DNA of 64,000 nt from Basidiobolus meristosporus CBS 931.73 (Eukaryota; Basidiobolomycota; Basidiobolomycetes; Basidiobolales; Basidiobolaceae), in NCBI GenBank assembly GCA_002104905.1, contig MCFE01000172.1, positions 79,667-143,666 on the forward strand, read 5' to 3'. Below, in pieces: positions 56,066 through 64,000 of this stretch. Below the pieces are notes generated by a model. That model was not told the DNA's origin. It searched no databases and worked only from the letters and a program-made list of their open reading frames with translations. Position 1 is the first letter of the stretch, and every line of letters begins with the position of its first letter. The translations under genes and the position numbers were made by a program.

Positions 56066-57431
56066 CAGGAAGGAGTACTTTCATTTCATTTACTTGACAA
56101 TGTAAGCCTATTTTTCTGCAATTCCCTCCGGGCCAGTCTGTAGGCGTACGTTTTCGTATTTGCAATAGCAACCGAGTGACTCACATGATTACAGTTCTTT
56201 TTGTATATTCATGTAGAAGATTCTGTTCAAACCCGGCGTCTTGTTGTATCAGACTCTACCAGGCAAACGAAGACTTGTTATAGCGAATTTCTGGACTCTC
56301 GAAACACCAGTTATTTCTACAAAAGGACTTTTAAATATTGTTGAGGCTTGCCATACTCTGATAGGATAGACTCACTTAAGTAGGATACTCGCTTTAGAGT
56401 AAAATTTCCCTCATACTGTTATGATTTTTATTACCGAGATATATAAATGATGTGCAGAATGCCAATTTAACATGCTTAAGAATGTTAAAGAAATTCTTTA
56501 TGAATATTGATATATAAAAGTATAACGGTCCAATCAGTTGAGTATGAGTGTGATTATGTAGGAGCGTGGCTGTCAAAAAATGGGGATTTGCACAGGTCAC
56601 AGCTAGACACTGTTATATATCACATCTCTGCGTTGTGATGATCAAGTGATACACTATATAAATAGCCAGTTCTGACAAACTAGCGGTAGTAGTTTGGTGC
56701 CTTATCATATGCCGATCAACTTGCATAAATCAATATTGTGATGAAGATCGCCATTCTTTGAGGTAGTGTAAAACCAGATAGCTTAGTTCGATTAAATCAA
56801 ATGGGTTCCACTTGAACCCAAGAGTTTTGAAACTAGAGTCCAATCATCGAACACTCGCTATTTTGTTCAACAATAACAACAAATGGTTCAGTGAAAAGTA
56901 CGTAGCAACAATTTCCTCAACAGACACAATGTATCAAAAGTCACTTGCAATCAAACATCGACCTGCACCAGACTCATGCATAGGATAAGTAATCCCTCAT
57001 GAGGGAGTCAACAGCAGCCCATACTGGCTCAATACCGGCTAACTGCCGTTCACAGCAATCCAACGATCGGGACATTAATGGTACAGTGAACGCAAATTCA
57101 AGAGGTAGCATGCACCAGACTACATGGACTTCAACACCGTCTTCGGCATTGCTACATGATTAACTATCTGCTCCTTTCCAGCAGTTTATACGGCCAGATA
57201 GGTACTCATACTACAAGGACCTGTAGGGATGAAACAAGGTTTGTCTTCCTGGGTATCAGCAATGATCTATGAAACACACTCAAGATGAGAGGCAGCTTTT
57301 GTATGCCGAGTGTCGTTCGACTGGGCACATGAAACTATTGGATTGTTTGAAATTGCGCTCCACCAGGTACAAATATGGCCGTGCCCCAGCATATACCCAC
57401 TGTAGCCGAGTCCCTCTCGAAGTAGTTCAAC
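56066..57431. other. Intergenic, nothing recognised
   Basis: 1.4 kb upstream of the flavoenzyme gene. No ORF with family features, no RNA gene. Confidence 0.4.
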
Positions 57432-59114
57432 ATGCTGCAAATGACCAAAAGGACCCAGCTTCTTGCACTGCTCGGTGCAGGCAGTTTGTTGTGCTCCGTT
57501 GCCGAGGAGGCTGTCAGTCCAAATCTCCCCGGAAAGTACGTATCCTGGAATCGGTACGTGACATGTAATAGTCAAAAGATGGCGCAGCCCAGCAACGTCT
57601 TTGACCTTCAACGTATTGTACGGAATGCATACAAAAACGGAGGGCATGTAAAGGGGGTTGGTCATTTGCATTCATCCTCGGATATCATCTGCACGGACGG
57701 TATTGGTGTGAACTTCGACAAATTCAAAAAAATCAAGATCCATGAGGACCAACAGTCAGTTACCGTTGAAGCTGGGGTCAGAGTCTACGACCTTGTGAAA
57801 TATCTGAGCGAGAACGGCGTAGGGATAGCCAACTTTCCCAATATCGGAGACATATCGGTTGCTGGCGCCCTTGGCACAGGAGCTCATGGCTCTTCGCTTA
57901 TCCAGCCTAGCACCATGAGCGATTTGGTCCTTTCCATGAGAGTGGTGACTGGTACTGGTGAGTTGAAGACCATCAAAGGCGACTTGTTGGATGCCTTCCG
58001 TGTGCACATAGGCGTAGTTGGACTTCTCTACGATGTCACACTCAAGCTTATTCCCGGCTATAAGCTTCATGTTCAAAACTATCCTGTGCCTGCAAGTAAA
58101 TTGCTCGATGGTAGCATCGAGGCCATGGTGCCCAACTATGACCTGTTTCAGGTGTGGTGGTTCCCAAGCACTGACACCGCTGTTGTATCAAACGGAACAT
58201 ACGTGTCGGATGCCGAGCCTGGGAATGATAAATGGAATTTCATCACTTCTGCAGATCCGCAGGATGTCACTGGAATGGTCGACACATTTGAAAGTGTGCA
58301 GGCCGCTCGTGACGTAGGCAAGATTTGCAAGATGGAAGCTGAAGCGGAGAAATCATTTTGGACCAAAGTCCCAGGCAAGCCGGCGATCTATTCAAATCCT
58401 CAAGGAGAACTCCGGAATCCCGCAGTAGGATTCCCGCATGACATGATGTCTCAAGTCTGTAGTCCATGTTCATGGGATGGAAAAGTGAACAAGATTCCAT
58501 TTGACCTTCGCCATATCTCCATGGGCGTCCCGTTAGAGCGCTTTAAAGAACTGGTCCAGGAAATCCAGAAGATTCTGGACAGGTTCCCTGCTTGCTTTCC
58601 ATTCAACGGTATCTGGTTCCGATTCAGCCCAGCTTCTGATGGCTGGATGTCCCTCTCTTACGGTCGCAAAACGGTTCATATAGAATTCCTTACTCCTTGC
58701 CGAGTGAATAAAGACAGCGACCCTAAACTTGGTATTGAGGCAATCCAGCTCATTAGCCAAACCCTAGTGAACAAGTTTGACGCACGGCCACACTGGGGCA
58801 AGAATGGGCATTATTATTTCTCGCACAAGGTTCGCTCTGCTGTTCATCCAAAGCTCAAGGAATTCGGCCAACTTGCCAAGTCACTCGACCCGCGTGGTGT
58901 ATTTAGCAACGACTTTACAGATCGTATCTTCCATAGTAATCCCTCAAAGCTTGCATCAACAGTCAAGCAATGTGCTTTAGAAGATATCTGCCTCTGCTCG
59001 CGTGATACTGATTGTGCATATGGCCAAATTTGCGTAAAGGAAAACGAATATAGGTACTGTACTTATAAGGAGGAAGGATATAGACTGGATGATGCTTTCA
59101 CTGAAGCCTTTTAA
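57432..59114 (+). CDS. Secreted FAD-linked oxidase, aldonolactone oxidase (L-gulonolactone/arabinonolactone) family
   Basis: Intronless frame of 560 residues. A signal peptide (LLALLGAGSLLCSVAEE) is followed by a PCMH-type FAD-binding domain: the GVGHLHSSSD loop, VTVEAGVRVYDLVKYL and ISVAGALGTGAHGSS. The C-terminal aldonolactone oxidase domain has the diagnostic RPHWGKNG block and LDPRGVF. The enzyme class oxidises aldono-1,4-lactones to ascorbate or erythroascorbate-type products with O2 or cytochrome c as acceptor. The His-containing GVGHLHSSSD occupies the place of the flavin-linking GHS motif in related enzymes. The last about 50 residues form a Cys-rich tail (six Cys in CALEDICLCSRDTDCAYGQI and the following CVKENEYRYC), suggesting disulfides and an extracellular location. 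It is the last gene before the terminal retroelements; lack of introns is unusual among its neighbours. Confidence 0.9.
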   Translation: MLQMTKRTQLLALLGAGSLLCSVAEEAVSPNLPGKYVSWNRYVTCNSQKMAQPSNVFDLQRIVRNAYKNGGHVKGVGHLHSSSDIICTDGIGVNFDKFKKIKIHEDQQSVTVEAGVRVYDLVKYLSENGVGIANFPNIGDISVAGALGTGAHGSSLIQPSTMSDLVLSMRVVTGTGELKTIKGDLLDAFRVHIGVVGLLYDVTLKLIPGYKLHVQNYPVPASKLLDGSIEAMVPNYDLFQVWWFPSTDTAVVSNGTYVSDAEPGNDKWNFITSADPQDVTGMVDTFESVQAARDVGKICKMEAEAEKSFWTKVPGKPAIYSNPQGELRNPAVGFPHDMMSQVCSPCSWDGKVNKIPFDLRHISMGVPLERFKELVQEIQKILDRFPACFPFNGIWFRFSPASDGWMSLSYGRKTVHIEFLTPCRVNKDSDPKLGIEAIQLISQTLVNKFDARPHWGKNGHYYFSHKVRSAVHPKLKEFGQLAKSLDPRGVFSNDFTDRIFHSNPSKLASTVKQCALEDICLCSRDTDCAYGQICVKENEYRYCTYKEEGYRLDDAFTEAF

Positions 59115-59314
59115 TAAATGAAGCGATATGGGAAGTCTGGCTTTCTAGATGCCAATTATAGCTTCCATATCTGCTCTCAACATACACTGTGCCATTAGTA
59201 GGAATAGTCCGAGACATATCAGCTGAACGTACTGTATGCTAATTTTAAGTTGTATTGGGGCTAGCGCAGATGGATAGCCACAACAGCTAGGGAATTACTT
59301 AAGGGGGGAGACAG

Positions 59315-59328
59315 TCACCAACAGGTGA
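59315..59328 (-). repeat. 3'-terminal hairpin of retroelement copy 1
   Basis: TCACC/GGTGA inverted repeat with loop AACA on the plus strand, lying 12 nt from the element's 3' end and next to the AATAAA signal. The same stem occurs in copy 2 and in the distal SINE-like element, where the loop differs (AAGT). Confidence 0.8.
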
Positions 59329-59362
59329 AATCTTTATTTCAGTTGAAACAAAGAAGCCAGCG

Positions 59363-61402
59363 CTACTGTTGTAGCTTTGATACAAGAGTGTGTAGCTGAG
59401 GGGAATTTGTAGGTAAGTTAATAAGAAGTGATGATAGTTCTTCAGTGCTCAAGACACTGTTCACTGGGAAGGGGGGTAGCAAGAGAGGTAAGAATGACTT
59501 GTGAACAACATTAATGAGGGGAATGTGATAAGGGTTGATATTCATCTTAAAGGGAGTGTGCTGCTGCAGATATTGCTGCCAAAGGTCTGTCAAGTACTTC
59601 ATGTAGGCCAGCTTGGGTTTTTCTGACTGCAGAATATAGTGTGCAAACTTCTTGACTTCAGGATCTCCAAGTATAGTTCTCCAGCAGGAGCCAGGTGTTG
59701 TGTGGTGTGTTCTCTTCCAGGCCTTAATCAGTGGGTTGCTGCAGTTGTGAAGTCTGAGGTATAATCTGGTTCTAAGGTAGAGAAGTCTGATCTTATAGGG
59801 CATAAACCCAAAAGCACCAAGAATAGCATGTCTGTAGGGGCATTCAGGCAAATGAGGCACCAAGGAGGTAATGCACCATACTGCAAACTTGTCAAGCTTA
59901 GTGCAGTCTCTAGAAGTAAGAGAGAGAAGTGGTAAGCCAAATTCCAGGACAGGGAAGACAAACTGCTTGAGTAGAAGGAGGCAGCTGGGAGCTGAAGTTG
60001 TAGGAGGAGTAACAGCCAGTAGCTTGTGGAGTGCCTGTCTTGCCAGGATAATTCTCTTCTTCAGGTGTGCTCCAGAGTCTATTCCAGTAAGAAGGAAAGG
60101 AAAGCCAAGATATGTAGCAGAAACCTGAGCAGGTAGAGTGGAGTTCTCCAAGTTGATGGGAGAGCCCAAAGGTACTGTCTTTGCAATGGAAAGCGGGAGA
60201 TTATTCTTCTGCAGATACTGGTGGATGGTCTGGGAGTCTTGTTGCACATTGGAGGAGGATATTCTGATGTCATCAGCAAAGAGAGTAACCAGGCAGTCAG
60301 CTGAGAGTCTTGGGAAATCATTCAGGAAGATGGCAAACAGTATAGGACCAAGCACAGAGCCTTGAACCACTCCATTAGGAACTGAGAACACAGCTGATTG
60401 CTCACTTGGGTGCAGAATTCTTGCTTGTGGATCCAGAAATAGAGACCTGACAAGGAGGGTGAGAGAGGTACTGGAGAAGCATTGCAACTTGGACCAAAGC
60501 AGATTTCTGTCAACTGAATCAAAGGCCTTAGTAATATCAAACAGAACTGAGGGATACTTGCACTGGAGAGAGTGATCTTGGCTAAGTATGACTGCATATT
60601 CCAAGGAGAGGCCAGGAACAAAGCCAAACTGTGCAGGATGAAACTTGAGGGAGTCAGAGTAGAGCTCCTGAGCAAGCAGAAGCTCAAACACCTTTCTGCA
60701 GGTGGGAAGCAGAGATATTGGCCTGTAGGAGCTAGGATCCAGGTGCTTTCCTTTACCCTTGTACAGTGGGAGAACATTTGCAAAGGACCATTCCTCAGGA
60801 GTAGAAAGCTGGGCTGAGCATTGTTGAAACAGTGGAAGCAGAAGTGCAGACATGGCCTTGGTACTAGTCTTCAGAAGCTCATAGGAGATTGTGTCCACAC
60901 CTGGAGCAGTAGAGTTGGGAAGCCTCTTGAGCACATTATGGTTTCTCCTTTGATCAAGTGCAAGTGGGATGGGCAGAGTCTTGAAGTCAGGATGAAAGCC
61001 AGGAGTTGAGTACTGCTTTGTAGAGAAGAAGATGTTAGCCAGCTGTTCTGTTGAAGGTAACTTCCTGGAGGAGGGCCTCATTGCCCTGTAGAGTCTTGAT
61101 ACTGTTCTTGTTATAGAGTTGGAAGATTGCAGAGGCAAAGAACTCATAATATGATCCCAGAGCTGAGTATGCAGAGTGTGGTGAATTGCCTTGGAGTGAT
61201 GTATTGCTGTCAGGAGGAGTTTCTCTGTTTTTGGGTTAGGGAAACTCAGGTAGCTTTGTTGCAGGGCTGAAACAATGGATTCCCATTTTCTTGAGGTAAC
61301 AGCAGTAGTCTTGCATGGCAGTGAGAGGGAGGCAGACACCAGAATCAGATGCTTCACAAAGAGCCAGGCATAGTTGAGATCATCTGGCAGAGAAAGTAGC
61401 AA
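59363..61402 (-). CDS. Non-LTR reverse transcriptase, N-terminally truncated by the element break
   Basis: 679 codons, open through the truncation point, so no genuine start codon is visible (the first codon is TTG at the junction). Reverse-transcriptase motifs in order: NSTAPGVDTISYELLK; LYKGKGKHLDPSSYRPISLL; DITKAFDSVDR with a catalytic Asp; GVVQGSVLGPILFAIFLND; LFADDIRISS with the catalytic FADD (about 60266-60290); then a thumb region and a C-terminal extension of about 250 residues. No CCHC knuckle or restriction-like endonuclease motif is seen in the C-terminal extension. Any apurinic-type endonuclease would lie upstream, in the lost part. The family cannot be narrowed beyond LINE-type. 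Intact downstream of the break. Confidence 0.92.
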   Translation of the reverse strand: MLLSLPDDLNYAWLFVKHLILVSASLSLPCKTTAVTSRKWESIVSALQQSYLSFPNPKTEKLLLTAIHHSKAIHHTLHTQLWDHIMSSLPLQSSNSITRTVSRLYRAMRPSSRKLPSTEQLANIFFSTKQYSTPGFHPDFKTLPIPLALDQRRNHNVLKRLPNSTAPGVDTISYELLKTSTKAMSALLLPLFQQCSAQLSTPEEWSFANVLPLYKGKGKHLDPSSYRPISLLPTCRKVFELLLAQELYSDSLKFHPAQFGFVPGLSLEYAVILSQDHSLQCKYPSVLFDITKAFDSVDRNLLWSKLQCFSSTSLTLLVRSLFLDPQARILHPSEQSAVFSVPNGVVQGSVLGPILFAIFLNDFPRLSADCLVTLFADDIRISSSNVQQDSQTIHQYLQKNNLPLSIAKTVPLGSPINLENSTLPAQVSATYLGFPFLLTGIDSGAHLKKRIILARQALHKLLAVTPPTTSAPSCLLLLKQFVFPVLEFGLPLLSLTSRDCTKLDKFAVWCITSLVPHLPECPYRHAILGAFGFMPYKIRLLYLRTRLYLRLHNCSNPLIKAWKRTHHTTPGSCWRTILGDPEVKKFAHYILQSEKPKLAYMKYLTDLWQQYLQQHTPFKMNINPYHIPLINVVHKSFLPLLLPPFPVNSVLSTEELSSLLINLPTNSPQLHTLVSKLQQ

Positions 61403-61404
61403 AC

Positions 61405-61413
61405 TTAGGGGGG
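61405..61413. repeat. Telomere-like junction between copies 1 and 2
   Basis: TTAGGGGGG separates the broken 5' end of copy 1 from the 3' end of copy 2. One telomeric hexamer plus extra G residues. Confidence 0.7.
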
Positions 61414-61420
61414 GAGACAG

Positions 61421-61434
61421 TCACCAACAGGTGA
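61421..61434 (-). repeat. 3'-terminal hairpin of retroelement copy 2
   Basis: Same TCACC/GGTGA stem and AACA loop as in copy 1, at the same distance from the element end. Confidence 0.8.
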
Positions 61435-61566
61435 AATCTTTATTTCAGTTGAAACAAAGAAGCCAGCGCTACTGTTGTAGCTTTGATACAAGAGTGTGTA
61501 GCTGAGGGGAATTTGTAGGTAAGTTAATAAGAAGTGATGATAGTTCTTCAGTGCTCAAGACACTGT

Positions 61567-63218
61567 TCAGTGGGAAGGGGGGTAGCAAGAGAGGTAAGAA
61601 TGATTTTGAACAACATTAATGAGGGGAATGTGATAAGGATTGATATTCATCATAAAGGGAGTGTGCTGCTGCAGATATTGCTGCCAAAGGTCTGTCAAGT
61701 ACTTCAGGTAGGCCAGCTTAGGTTTTTCTGACTGCAGAATATAGTGAGCAAACTTCTTGACTTCAGGATCTCCAAGTATAGTTCTCCAGCAGGAGCCAGG
61801 TGTTGTGTGGTGTGTTCTCTTCCAGGCCTTAATCAGTGGGTTGTTGCAGTTGTGAAGTCTGAGGTATAATCTGGTTCTAAGGTAGAGAAGTCTGATCTTA
61901 TAGGGCATAAACCCAAAAGCACCAAGAATAGCATGTCTGTAGGGGCATTCAGGCAAATGAGGCACCAAGGAGGTAATGCACCATACTGCAAACTTGTCAA
62001 GCTTAGTGCAGTCTCTAGAAGTAAGAGAGAGAAGTGGTAAGCCAAATTCCAGGACAGGGAAGACAAACTGCTTGAGTAGAAGGAGGCAGCTGGGAGCTGA
62101 AGTTGTAGGAGGAGTAACAGCCAGTAGCTTGTGGAGTGCCTGTCTTGCCAGGATAATTCTCTTCTTCAGGTGTGCTCCAGAGTCTATTCCAGTAGGAAGG
62201 AAAGGAAAGCCAAGATATGTAGCAGAAACCTGAGCAGGTAGAGTGGAGTTCTCCAAGTTGATGGGAGAGCCCAAAGGTACTGTCTTTGCAATGGAAAGCG
62301 GGAGATTATTCTTCTGCAGATACTGGTGGATGGTCTGGGAGTCTTGTTGCACATTGGAGGAGGATATTCTGATGTCATCAGCAAAGAGAGTAACCAGGCA
62401 GTCAGCTGAGAGTCTTGGGAAATCATTCAGGAAGATGGCAAACAGTATAGGACCAAGCACAGAGCCTTGAACCACTCCATTAGGAACTGAGAACACAGCT
62501 GATTGCTCACTTGGGTGCAGAATTCTTGCTTGTGGATCCAGAAATAGAGACCTGACAAGGAGGGTGAGAGAGGTACTGGAGAAGCATTGCAACTTGGACC
62601 AAAGCAGATTTCTGTCAACAGAATCAAAGGCCTTAGTAATATCAAACAGAACAGAGGGATACTTGCACTGGAGAGAGTGATCTTGGCTAAGTATGACTGC
62701 ATATTCCAAGGAGAGGCCAGGAACAAAGCCAAACTGTGCAGGATGAAACTTGAGGGAGTCAGAGTAGAGCTCCTGAGCAAGCAGAAGCTCAAACACCTTT
62801 CTGCAGGTGGGCAGCAGAGATATTGGCCTGTAGGAGCTAGGATCCAGGTGCTTTCCTTTACCCTTGTACAGTGGCAGAACATTTGCAAAGGACCATTCCT
62901 CAGGAGTAGAAAGCTGGGCTGAGCATTGTTGAAACAGTGGAAGCAGAAGTGCAGACATGCCCTTGGTACTAGTCTTCAGAAGCTCATAGGAGATTGTGTC
63001 CACACCTGGAGCAGTAGAGTTGGGAAGCCTCTTGAGCACATTATGGTTTCTCCTTTGATCAAGTGCAAGTGGGATGGGCAGAGTCTTGAAGTCAGGATGA
63101 AAGCCAGGAGTTGAGTACTGCTTTGTAGAGAAGAAGATGTTAGCCAGCTGTTCTGTTGAAGGTAACTTCCTGGAGGAGGGCCTCATTGCCCTGTAGAGTC
63201 TTGATACTGTTCTTGTTA
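61567..63218 (-). pseudogene. Non-LTR reverse transcriptase, truncated and frameshifted
   Basis: The frame corresponds to copy 1 residues from RLYRAMRPSS onward and retains all visible catalytic motifs, including FADD. A 1-nt deletion at about 61601-61610 shifts the frame after INVV, replacing the last about 40 residues of copy 1 with a short unrelated tail. The N-terminus is lost at the telomeric break. The copy may still encode an RT core but not the full C-terminus. Confidence 0.88.
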
Positions 63219-63249
63219 GGGTTGGGTTAGGGTTAGGGTTGGGTTAGGG
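63215..63249. repeat. Interstitial telomeric tract with TTGGG variants
   Basis: About six telomere-like units, a mixture of TTAGGG and TTGGG, between the broken 5' end of copy 2 and the 3' end of the distal element. It ends in a run of G residues at the element boundary. Confidence 0.85.
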
Positions 63250-63258
63250 GGAGGAAAG

Positions 63259-63272
63259 TCACCAAGTGGTGA
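63259..63272 (-). repeat. 3'-terminal hairpin of the SINE-like element
   Basis: TCACC/GGTGA stem with loop AAGT. The stem is identical to those of the LINE copies; only the loop has changed. Confidence 0.8.
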
Positions 63273-63328
63273 AATCTTTATTTACTTATGACAAGTATCT
63301 AAAGAAGCCAAGTTAATCTGAAGTAATT

Positions 63329-63447
63329 CCTAGAAAGCTAGGTCTGAGAGATATCTTCCTGGTAAGCCAGGTCTGAGAGTTGAGAAGCTGAGTGGTACTA
63401 TATTTCCTAGTTAGCTAGGTCTGAGAGAGGTTTCCTGGAAAGCCAGG
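63329..63447. repeat. Four covarying hairpins in two pairs
   Basis: Perfect 5-bp stems with 4-nt loops at 63329-63342 (CCTAG/CTAGG), 63358-63371 (CCTGG/CCAGG), 63406-63419 (CCTAG/CTAGG) and 63434-63447 (CCTGG/CCAGG). Each is followed by TCTGAGAG or a close variant. The TAG-type and TGG-type alternate, about 29 nt apart within each pair, and the pairs are about 77 nt apart. The A-T to G-C change in the stem occurs on both arms each time. Confidence 0.85.
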
Positions 63448-63693
63448 CCTGAGAAGTGAGAATCTGAATATATCTGAGCTAAGTTATAATGGTTTGCGGT
63501 AGCTAAATTGTGGCCGGAATGGCCAGTAGACTGGGGGAACTGAGATGAATTTCTGGGCGATCACTGGCCAAATTTACTAGGCAAATCTGGCCAATTAGCA
63601 TTTCAAGGATTTCAGCCAATCAGAACCTTTACTTTGCCCGATGCTTGATCAAGCCATCTCCCAATGAGCACACATCAATTTATTAATCAAATT

Positions 63694-63766
63694 TTGCTGG
63701 ATCCAGGATTTGAACCCACAACCATGGGTATGGAAGGGTTAGGGATAACCACAAGGCTAAGTGTTC
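63694..63766 (-). other. tRNA-like region (degenerate Pol III internal promoter)
   Basis: On the minus strand an A-box-like TAGCCTTGTGGTTA (63759-63746) is followed 43 nt later by a B box GGTTCAAATCC (63716-63706), the spacing of a real tRNA. The acceptor and anticodon arms do not fold properly, so this is not a functional tRNA; it is more likely the head of a SINE. Confidence 0.55.
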
Positions 63767-63768
63767 TT

Positions 63769-64000
63769 GGTTAGGGTTAGGGTTAGGGTTAGGTAGGTTA
63801 GGGTTAGGGTTAGGGTTAGGGTTAGGGTTAGGGTTAGGGTTAGGGTTAGGGTTAGGGTTAGGGTTAGGGTTAGGGTTAGGGTTAGGGTTAGGGTTAGGGT
63901 TAGGGTTAGGGTTAGGGTTAGGGTTAGGGTTAGGGTTAGGGTTAGGGTTAGGGTTAGGGTTAGGGTTAGGGTTAGGGTTAGGGTTAGGTTAGGGTTAGGG
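63769..64000 (+). repeat. Telomere, (TTAGGG)n
   Basis: About 38 tandem TTAGGG units running to the window edge, G-strand 5'-to-3' toward the edge, so this is the right end of a chromosome. Two shortened or irregular units occur, near 63790-63800 and near 63985. Confidence 0.97.

What the first reader, a model, noticed from the sequence alone, without database searches (positions are those of the whole stretch)
59301..63772. Head-to-tail retroelements at the chromosome end, all with RNA 3' ends facing the centromere
Seen: two LINE copies and one SINE-like element in the same orientation, each 3' end proximal and each 5' end (truncated in the LINEs) distal, followed by the telomere. Known: Drosophila HeT-A/TART and some terminal elements of rotifers and Giardia have this geometry because element RNA is reverse-transcribed onto an exposed chromosome end. 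Inference: this fungal family extends or caps ends in a similar way while telomerase repeats are also present.
Basis: partly seen in the sequence, partly recalled or inferred. Interest (0 to 1): 0.9.

Follow-up and report, generated by a model that had tools for sequence, protein, structure and literature searches.

The report
Telomere-capping retroelement guild in a fungus
In this fungus, many chromosome ends carry stacks of jumping genes that nearly all point the same way and seem to be copied straight onto exposed ends, working beside ordinary telomere repeats much as fruit-fly telomeres are built.

Summary
Two LINE copies (59303-61404, 61408-63218) and a SINE-like element (63247-63769) lie head to tail, 3' ends proximal, before terminal (TTAGGG)n. 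The genome is probably Basidiobolus meristosporus. The LINE 3' 35-mer occurs 603 times, the SINE tail 458, related tails (families B, C) 360. Of 156 listed hits in contigs over 40 kb, all have the 3' end proximal and 155 lie within 20 kb of a contig end (lengths interpolated); a separate list of 42 gave 2 exceptions in 36. Junctions carry almost no telomere: median stub 9 nt (LINE, 76) or 11 nt (SINE, 25), against at least 155-235 nt at 11 true ends. In 20 of 23 comparisons an intact homologue runs on through the break without a telomere repeat. Best explanation: RNAs with a shared 3' hairpin and C-run tail are reverse-transcribed onto broken or eroded ends, and telomerase caps the result (a telomerase domain is encoded; integrity not shown). 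The LINE's endonuclease is APE-type, unlike that of fungal MoTeR/FoTeR/Cnl1. Two partner families show only an ORF1-like protein, as HeT-A does. New variant of a known kind; the mechanism is inferred.

The parts
59303..61404 (-). LINE copy 1, 5'-truncated; RNA 3' end at 59303 (G-run 59303-59308), joined to non-telomeric DNA (AATTACTTAA)
   Evidence: RVT_1 in frame 59363-61420; flank 57400-59290 single copy apart from 71% paralogues
59303..59345 (-). shared 3' tail: AAATAAAGATTTCACC - loop - GGTGA hairpin and terminal C-run
   Evidence: MFE -9.6, z -2.42; 26 invariant columns, one copy of each of five families
61405..61410 (.). single TTAGGG unit at the copy 1 / copy 2 junction (last Gs shared with the copy 2 G-run)
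61408..63218 (-). LINE copy 2, more strongly 5'-truncated; RVT_1 in frame 61567-63243
63215..63249 (.). interstitial telomere-like tract with two TTGGG variants between copy 2 5' end and SINE 3' end
63247..63769 (-). SINE-like element, 3' tail shared with LINE; tRNA-like A box (63749-63759) and B box (63706-63716) seen by eye with one mismatch each to recalled consensus; no tRNA match by ARAGORN or Rfam
63769..64000 (+). terminal (TTAGGG)n, end of contig

Best explanation
The window shows one end of a guild of telomere-terminal retroelements: a LINE with an APE-type endonuclease (family A), a second LINE (C), two families in which only an ORF1-like protein was found (B, D) and a SINE, all with the same 3' RNA tail. 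Shown: location, orientation, shared tail, very short telomeric stubs at the 3' junctions, and breaks in non-telomeric DNA at junctions. Inferred: the LINE reverse transcriptase uses the 3' OH of an exposed end that has few or no TTAGGG repeats as primer. The G-rich end anneals to the C-run of the RNA tail, and cDNA grows outward. It often stops early, and telomerase or another element is added to the new end. The stub is either 1-2 repeats made by telomerase before attachment, or is copied from the RNA's own 3' end.
For: Position and orientation: 39/39, 54/54, 62/63 listed hits in contigs over 40 kb. 9 of 9 contigs with listed long telomere tracts carry element hits; of 20 contigs taken from a random draw, all 5 telomere-bearing ends carry elements next to the telomere. 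Stubs: LINE median 9 nt, range 3-31 (76 of 79 junctions; 3 had no clear G-run), SINE median 11, range 3-37 (25 of 25); terminal tracts at least 155-235 nt at 11 ends. Breaks: 23 broken/intact pairs, 20 clean. Independence: 105 junction sites in 48 contigs have 104 distinct 60-nt contexts. Very short copies (roughly 16-40 nt) followed by a stub and the next element (L034, L045, L052, L081). Shared tail. APE-type fold of a relative. Telomerase domain.
Against: The endonuclease domain is kept, which would be odd if it were never needed; one catalytic-type Glu is Asp in the family, but Asp may still work. Two of 36 copies are internal or reversed (C558, C726), and 20 of 144 hits in short contigs are nearer the other end. 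One break (L010) lies in a GGGTTAGGG that the intact copy also has, as a cut at an internal telomere-like site would give. Insertion at the base of a telomere, or loss of repeats after insertion, would leave similar stubs. The window's own flank has no intact allele. Several broken neighbours are themselves elements, whose ends could be ordinary 5' truncations. The tail hairpin is only weakly better than shuffles outside family A (z -1.0 to -1.6).
Confidence: 0.62

Rival explanations
1. Site-specific insertion: the APE-type endonuclease nicks TTAGGG repeats near the base of a normal telomere, as SART1/TRAS1 do inside telomeric arrays, and the distal tract stays in place.
For: APE-type fold of relative P0004 scores alike against TRAS1 EN, R1 EN and APE1; TTA directly precedes the G-run in 62 of 76 LINE and 20 of 25 SINE junctions, a constant register; MoTeR1 was seen inserted one repeat from an rDNA-telomere junction (PMC7367193, passages).
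Against: Random insertion in a tract of 155-235 nt would not give stubs of median 9-11 nt and maximum 37 nt; 6 of 76 LINE and 1 of 25 SINE junctions have no TTA unit; breaks lie in sequences that have no telomere in intact homologues in 20 of 23 pairs. It survives if cutting is confined to the innermost repeats of telomeres that had healed those breaks.
Confidence: 0.25
2. Assembly artefact: contigs simply stop in repeats, so any repeat appears at contig ends.
For: 3 of 20 sampled contigs end inside an element (C13, C113, C364), and contig orientation is biased (566 to 37), which is probably an assembler effect.
Against: A repeat that merely stops assembly would be found in both orientations relative to the end; here orientation is nearly uniform. 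A telomere tract lies distal to the elements at the 11 telomere-bearing ends read, though 6 of the 11 are the window and loci fetched for a LINE match.
Confidence: 0.04
3. Passive spread: a few ancestral insertions were copied between chromosome ends by recombination or break-induced replication.
For: Break-induced rearrangement of ends is described for MoTeR strains (PMC7367193, passages); the 40 best copies are 99% alike over 500 nt of 3' end; one junction context is shared exactly by two contigs (C29, C726) and four more pairs are near-identical.
Against: 104 distinct 60-nt contexts among 105 junction sites, attached to different sequences with different truncation points; copying would repeat junctions. 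It may add copies, but cannot make the junctions.
Confidence: 0.09

Closest known systems
MoTeR1/MoTeR2 (Pyricularia oryzae), FoTeR (Fusarium oxysporum), Cnl1 (Cryptococcus)
   Same: Fungal non-LTR elements at telomeres beside TTAGGG repeats. For MoTeR (PMC7367193 passages): head to tail, 5' end always distal, 5'-truncated copies, a non-autonomous partner sharing the 3' end, short TTAGGG tracts between copies
   Different: They form the CRE clade with a restriction-like endonuclease (FoTeR paper section 18); this one has an N-terminal APE-type endonuclease. Here there are at least five families, a SINE and ORF1-only elements, and stubs are nearer 1-2 repeats than 3-7 (FoTeR) or half to over 20 (MoTeR).
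HeT-A / TART / TAHRE (Drosophila)
   Same: Outward cDNA growth geometry, terminal stacking, 5' truncation, ORF1-only element presumably mobilised by another element's reverse transcriptase (Drosophila side recalled; inferred here)
   Different: TTAGGG repeats and a telomerase domain are present here; a SINE takes part; phylogenetic clade not tested.
SART1 / TRAS1 (Bombyx mori)
   Same: APE-type endonuclease LINEs at telomeres together with telomeric repeats
   Different: They insert into telomeric repeats, the two families in opposite orientations (PMC10088271 passages); here stubs are tiny and orientation is nearly uniform over five families.
Athena and other telomeric Penelope-like elements (rotifers, other eukaryotes)
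   Same: Association with chromosome ends and telomeric repeats
   Different: Those are endonuclease-deficient Penelope-like elements (title of a cited paper; rest recalled); this is a two-ORF LINE with an endonuclease.
LINE/SINE pairs with a shared 3' tail (stringent-type LINEs, e.g. UnaL2/UnaSINE1; recalled)
   Same: Shared 3' hairpin tail between LINE and SINE
   Different: In the lists seen here the pair is nearly confined to chromosome ends.

Membership tests
CRE-clade telomeric LINEs (MoTeR/FoTeR/Cnl1) | restriction-like (REL) endonuclease in place of an APE-type one | tested here: not met
CRE-clade telomeric LINEs (MoTeR/FoTeR/Cnl1) | telomeric, 5' end distal, with TTAGGG at the 3' junction | tested here: met
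HeT-A/TART/TAHRE | terminal attachment geometry with 3' end proximal | tested here: met
   exceptions
HeT-A/TART/TAHRE | Gag/ORF1-only partner element | tested here: met
   In the copies read (two B, two D) an open frame 36% and 29% identical to LINE A ORF1 (163 and 154 alignment columns) lies next to the 3' tail where ORF2 would be; no reverse transcriptase frame seen there
HeT-A/TART/TAHRE | replaces telomerase | tested here: not met
   telomerase RNA-binding domain in two adjacent stretches at C880 (one with an in-frame TAG, so integrity not shown); TTAGGG tracts at ends
HeT-A/TART/TAHRE | Jockey clade reverse transcriptase | not tested
SART/TRAS | APE-type endonuclease | tested here: met
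   (TRAS1 1wdu and R1Bm 2ei9 tied with APE1; a shared fold only)
SART/TRAS | insertion at a fixed position within telomeric arrays | tested here: inconclusive
   register TTA-G is constant in 62 of 76 and 20 of 25 junctions, but arrays are absent: stubs of 3-37 nt and breaks in non-telomeric DNA
Penelope-like elements | GIY-YIG endonuclease or none; not a two-ORF LINE (recalled) | tested here: not met
   ORF1 plus EN-RT ORF2 in L094
SINE | pol III head from tRNA/5S/7SL | tested here: inconclusive
   two box-like motifs by eye; no ARAGORN or Rfam tRNA match
SINE | 3' tail shared with a partner LINE | tested here: met

The most novel reading that the evidence does not exclude
A HeT-A-like end-healing system works in parallel with telomerase: RNAs of five families carry their own telomere-priming tail (hairpin plus C-run, perhaps with a short CCCTAA seed), and the LINE reverse transcriptase seals broken or eroded ends directly, after which telomerase finishes the cap. 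A SINE and ORF1-only elements supply much of the end DNA. This would be an intermediate state between telomerase-only and retroelement-only telomeres, running on hundreds of ends.
Probability: 0.35. Interest if true: 0.9.

Novelty: new variant of a known kind. Interest (0 to 1): 0.78.

Why it matters
How a lineage could move from telomerase to retroelement telomeres is an old open question. Here both systems seem to act on the same ends in one fungus, with about 1,400 tail copies and an estimated few hundred telomere-bearing contig ends to study. The LINE's endonuclease type differs from that of the telomeric fungal LINEs in the papers I read. The 3' junctions can be read as a record of broken ends and how they were healed.

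Tried and rejected
Window flank as an empty-site test: 57400-59290 has only 71% paralogues at C1150 and C628, so no intact allele was found.

tRNA origin of the SINE: no ARAGORN or Rfam tRNA match. The only weak hit was SNORD22, E 1.7, taken as chance.

Forward/reverse counts (566/37, 426/32, 320/40; telomere 3191/35) were not used as evidence, because contig orientation comes from the assembler: in 20 sampled contigs 0 left and 5 right ends have telomere. Only orientation relative to contig ends counts.

Limits of the counts: distances use contig lengths interpolated from 60 known lengths in size-rank order (monotone), so single distances may be off by some kb. Only the first 100 places of each pattern search were listed (100 of 603, 458 and 360). 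The contigs over 40 kb in these lists are all large (about rank 1-200); middle-sized contigs are seen only. Short contigs (61, 46 and 37 of 100) were left out of the distance counts because both ends are near; in them the 5' side is the farther end in 9, 4 and 7 hits, 20 of 144. The 20 sampled contigs were taken by hand from a random draw of 60, passing over some already seen. Terminal tract lengths are minimums: L023's tract was cut by the locus edge, L097's is broken by one letter, and contig ends may be cut. Junction sites come from loci fetched for LINE matches plus the 20 sampled right ends; sites under 120 nt from a locus edge were skipped, and repeats of a 60-nt context were dropped before the stub counts.

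Of 23 broken/intact pairs, I set aside L090 and L011 (5' parts of telomeric elements compared with each other) and L010 (break in a GGGTTAGGG also present in the intact copy). Apparent resumption distal to the element was element sequence in the intact partner, or lay in the opposite orientation (L010, L030), or was a related LINE (L012).

A clade-level tree of the reverse transcriptase was not made, for want of named reference sequences. Papers: FoTeR abstract, outline and sections 18 and 19; PMC7367193, PMC8381367, PMC4700185 and PMC10088271 passages only. Starnes 2012, Gladyshev 2007 and other primary papers were not read (recalled or seen as citations). Claims that something is not in print rest on searches (listings only) in an open-licence library.
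Full report
What is in the window. The last 4.7 kb of contig C394 (143,666 bp; window = 79667-143666) holds two near-identical LINE copies (98-99% over the pieces compared) and one SINE-like element, all on the minus strand, then (TTAGGG)n to the contig end. Both LINE frames match RVT_1. Copy 1 joins non-telomeric DNA near a FAD/ALO-type oxidase gene (57426-59114); copy 2 joins the truncated 5' end of copy 1 through one TTAGGG unit; the SINE joins copy 2 through a 35-nt telomere-like tract.

Organism. Two of the best protein matches are named, and both are Basidiobolus meristosporus CBS 931.73 (P0002, 94% over 36% of the query; P0005, 63% over 60%). The genome is 89.0 Mb in 1,311 contigs, which fits my recollection of that assembly. 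The handle itself is unnamed, so the species is probable, not shown.

Genome-wide test. The exact 35-nt LINE 3' end occurs 566 + 37 times, control 0; the SINE tail 426 + 32 times at up to 2 mismatches; the B/C tail 320 + 40 times. Contig order follows size rank, so lengths could be interpolated from 60 known ones. Among the first 100 places listed for each, in contigs over 40 kb, 39 of 39 LINE, 54 of 54 SINE and 62 of 63 B/C hits are within 20 kb of a contig end, the last at 21.8 kb, and all have the 3' end proximal. With random positions and strands the B/C list would have a probability near 10^-58; this is rough, since stacked copies are not independent and the 21.8-kb hit was counted as inside. 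Among C1-C302, 71 contigs have 207 listed hits; 55 have two or more, of which 54 are uniform and one (C291) has hits at both ends. A separate BLAST list gave 34 of 36 in contigs over 40 kb; C558 (97 kb inside) and C726 (10 kb from the end, reversed) are exceptions. In short contigs 20 of 144 listed hits are nearer the end on their 3' side.

Telomeres. The 102-nt perfect repeat matches 3,191 + 35 times, overlapping. Eight fully listed tracts average about 11 matches, so telomere-bearing contig ends number very roughly 280, with wide error. The 9 listed tracts lie at contig ends (7 by known length, 2 by interpolation), and all 9 contigs carry element hits. In 20 sampled contigs, 5 right ends and no left end have telomere, and all 5 carry elements next to it: LINE 5' ends in C413 and C516, truncated LINEs in C677 and C724, family B in C318. 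A telomerase RNA-binding domain matches in two adjacent stretches at C880, over the family cut-off; one holds an in-frame TAG, so a working TERT is likely but not shown.

Junctions. Among 79 LINE 3' junctions, 76 have a clear G-run of 3-10 (mode 6). The telomeric stub is 3-31 nt, median 9; 47 of 76 have one TTA unit, 6 have none. Twenty-five SINE junctions have stubs of 3-37 nt, median 11. Eleven terminal tracts are at least 155-235 nt. So elements were not added at random places in normal telomeres. The junctions are mostly independent: 105 sites in 48 contigs have 104 distinct 60-nt contexts, with four more near-identical pairs. Of 100 junctions with 420 nt of proximal sequence, 57 follow family A or SINE sequence and 43 follow other DNA, including other telomeric families. 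For 23 of the 43 an intact homologue lies in another fetched locus; in 20, homology stops at the stub and the intact copy has no telomere repeat there. Several of these broken partners are themselves elements, whose breaks may be plain 5' truncations. Some copies are only about 16-40 nt long before the next stub and element (LINE A in L034 and L052, C-like tail in L045, D-like tail in L081), as expected if reverse transcription aborts at once on an end.

How it most likely works. The tail is what the five families share, so the LINE enzyme probably recognises it and mobilises the others. A G-rich 3' end pairs with the C-run, which would explain the variable G count, and cDNA grows outward, which explains orientation and 5' truncation. 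Ends with few or no repeats are used. Whether the stub is made by telomerase first or copied from RNA is open. The chief rival, cutting at the innermost telomeric repeats, cannot be excluded because the endonuclease is kept and the TTA-G register is nearly constant.

Relation to what is known. Telomeric retroelements beside telomeric repeats are known: MoTeR, FoTeR, Cnl1, SART/TRAS, Zepp, GilM/T, Athena. MoTeRs share orientation, stacking, truncation and a non-autonomous partner, and one was seen one repeat from an rDNA junction. New here, against the papers read, are the APE-type endonuclease in a fungal telomeric LINE, the ORF1-only and SINE partners, the number of families, and an early-diverging fungus. 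I found no paper on Basidiobolus telomeric elements in the library searched.

Corrected were the copy identity, the telomerase and ORF2 integrity, the independence of junctions (new), the short-contig exceptions (new), the sampling, the telomere count and the SART/TRAS position row (now inconclusive).

Noticed in passing
L092 and L094 (C413, C516), 5' part of LINE: Tandem monomers of about 100 nt at the LINE 5' end, one in L092 and about three in L094, plus a TTAGGGTTAGGG inside the 5' region.
   Followed up: partly
L021 (C558:95977-99474): An internal LINE/family B stack 97 kb inside a 218-kb contig, with a telomeric stub; a relic of an end fusion or a chimeric contig.
   Followed up: partly
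L020 and L027 (C726:58787 and 65687): Two LINE 3' ends facing each other 6.9 kb apart near a contig end; the reversed one shares its junction context exactly with C29:18148. Unexplained.
   Followed up: partly
L034, L045, L052, L081; C2:259984-260258: Element copies of only about 16-40 nt between two stubs; also three LINE 3' ends spaced exactly 120 nt in C2.
   Followed up: partly
whole assembly G000: Telomere-bearing contigs are nearly all oriented with the telomere on the right (3191 to 35 overlapping matches), probably an assembler effect of unknown cause.
   Followed up: partly
window 57426-59114: The last gene before the elements is a FAD/D-arabinono-lactone-oxidase-like protein with two 71% paralogues elsewhere (C1150, C628).
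   Followed up: partly
P0002, P0005 (K493DRAFT_353650, K493DRAFT_348252): Public gene models of Basidiobolus contain repeated LINE pieces, so some annotated host genes are element fragments.
   Followed up: no
3' tails of all five families: The tail holds AATAAA about 36 nt before the end, yet no junction shows a long T-run that a poly(A) tail would leave: of 105 sites 78 have two Ts, 8 three, 1 four.
   Followed up: partly
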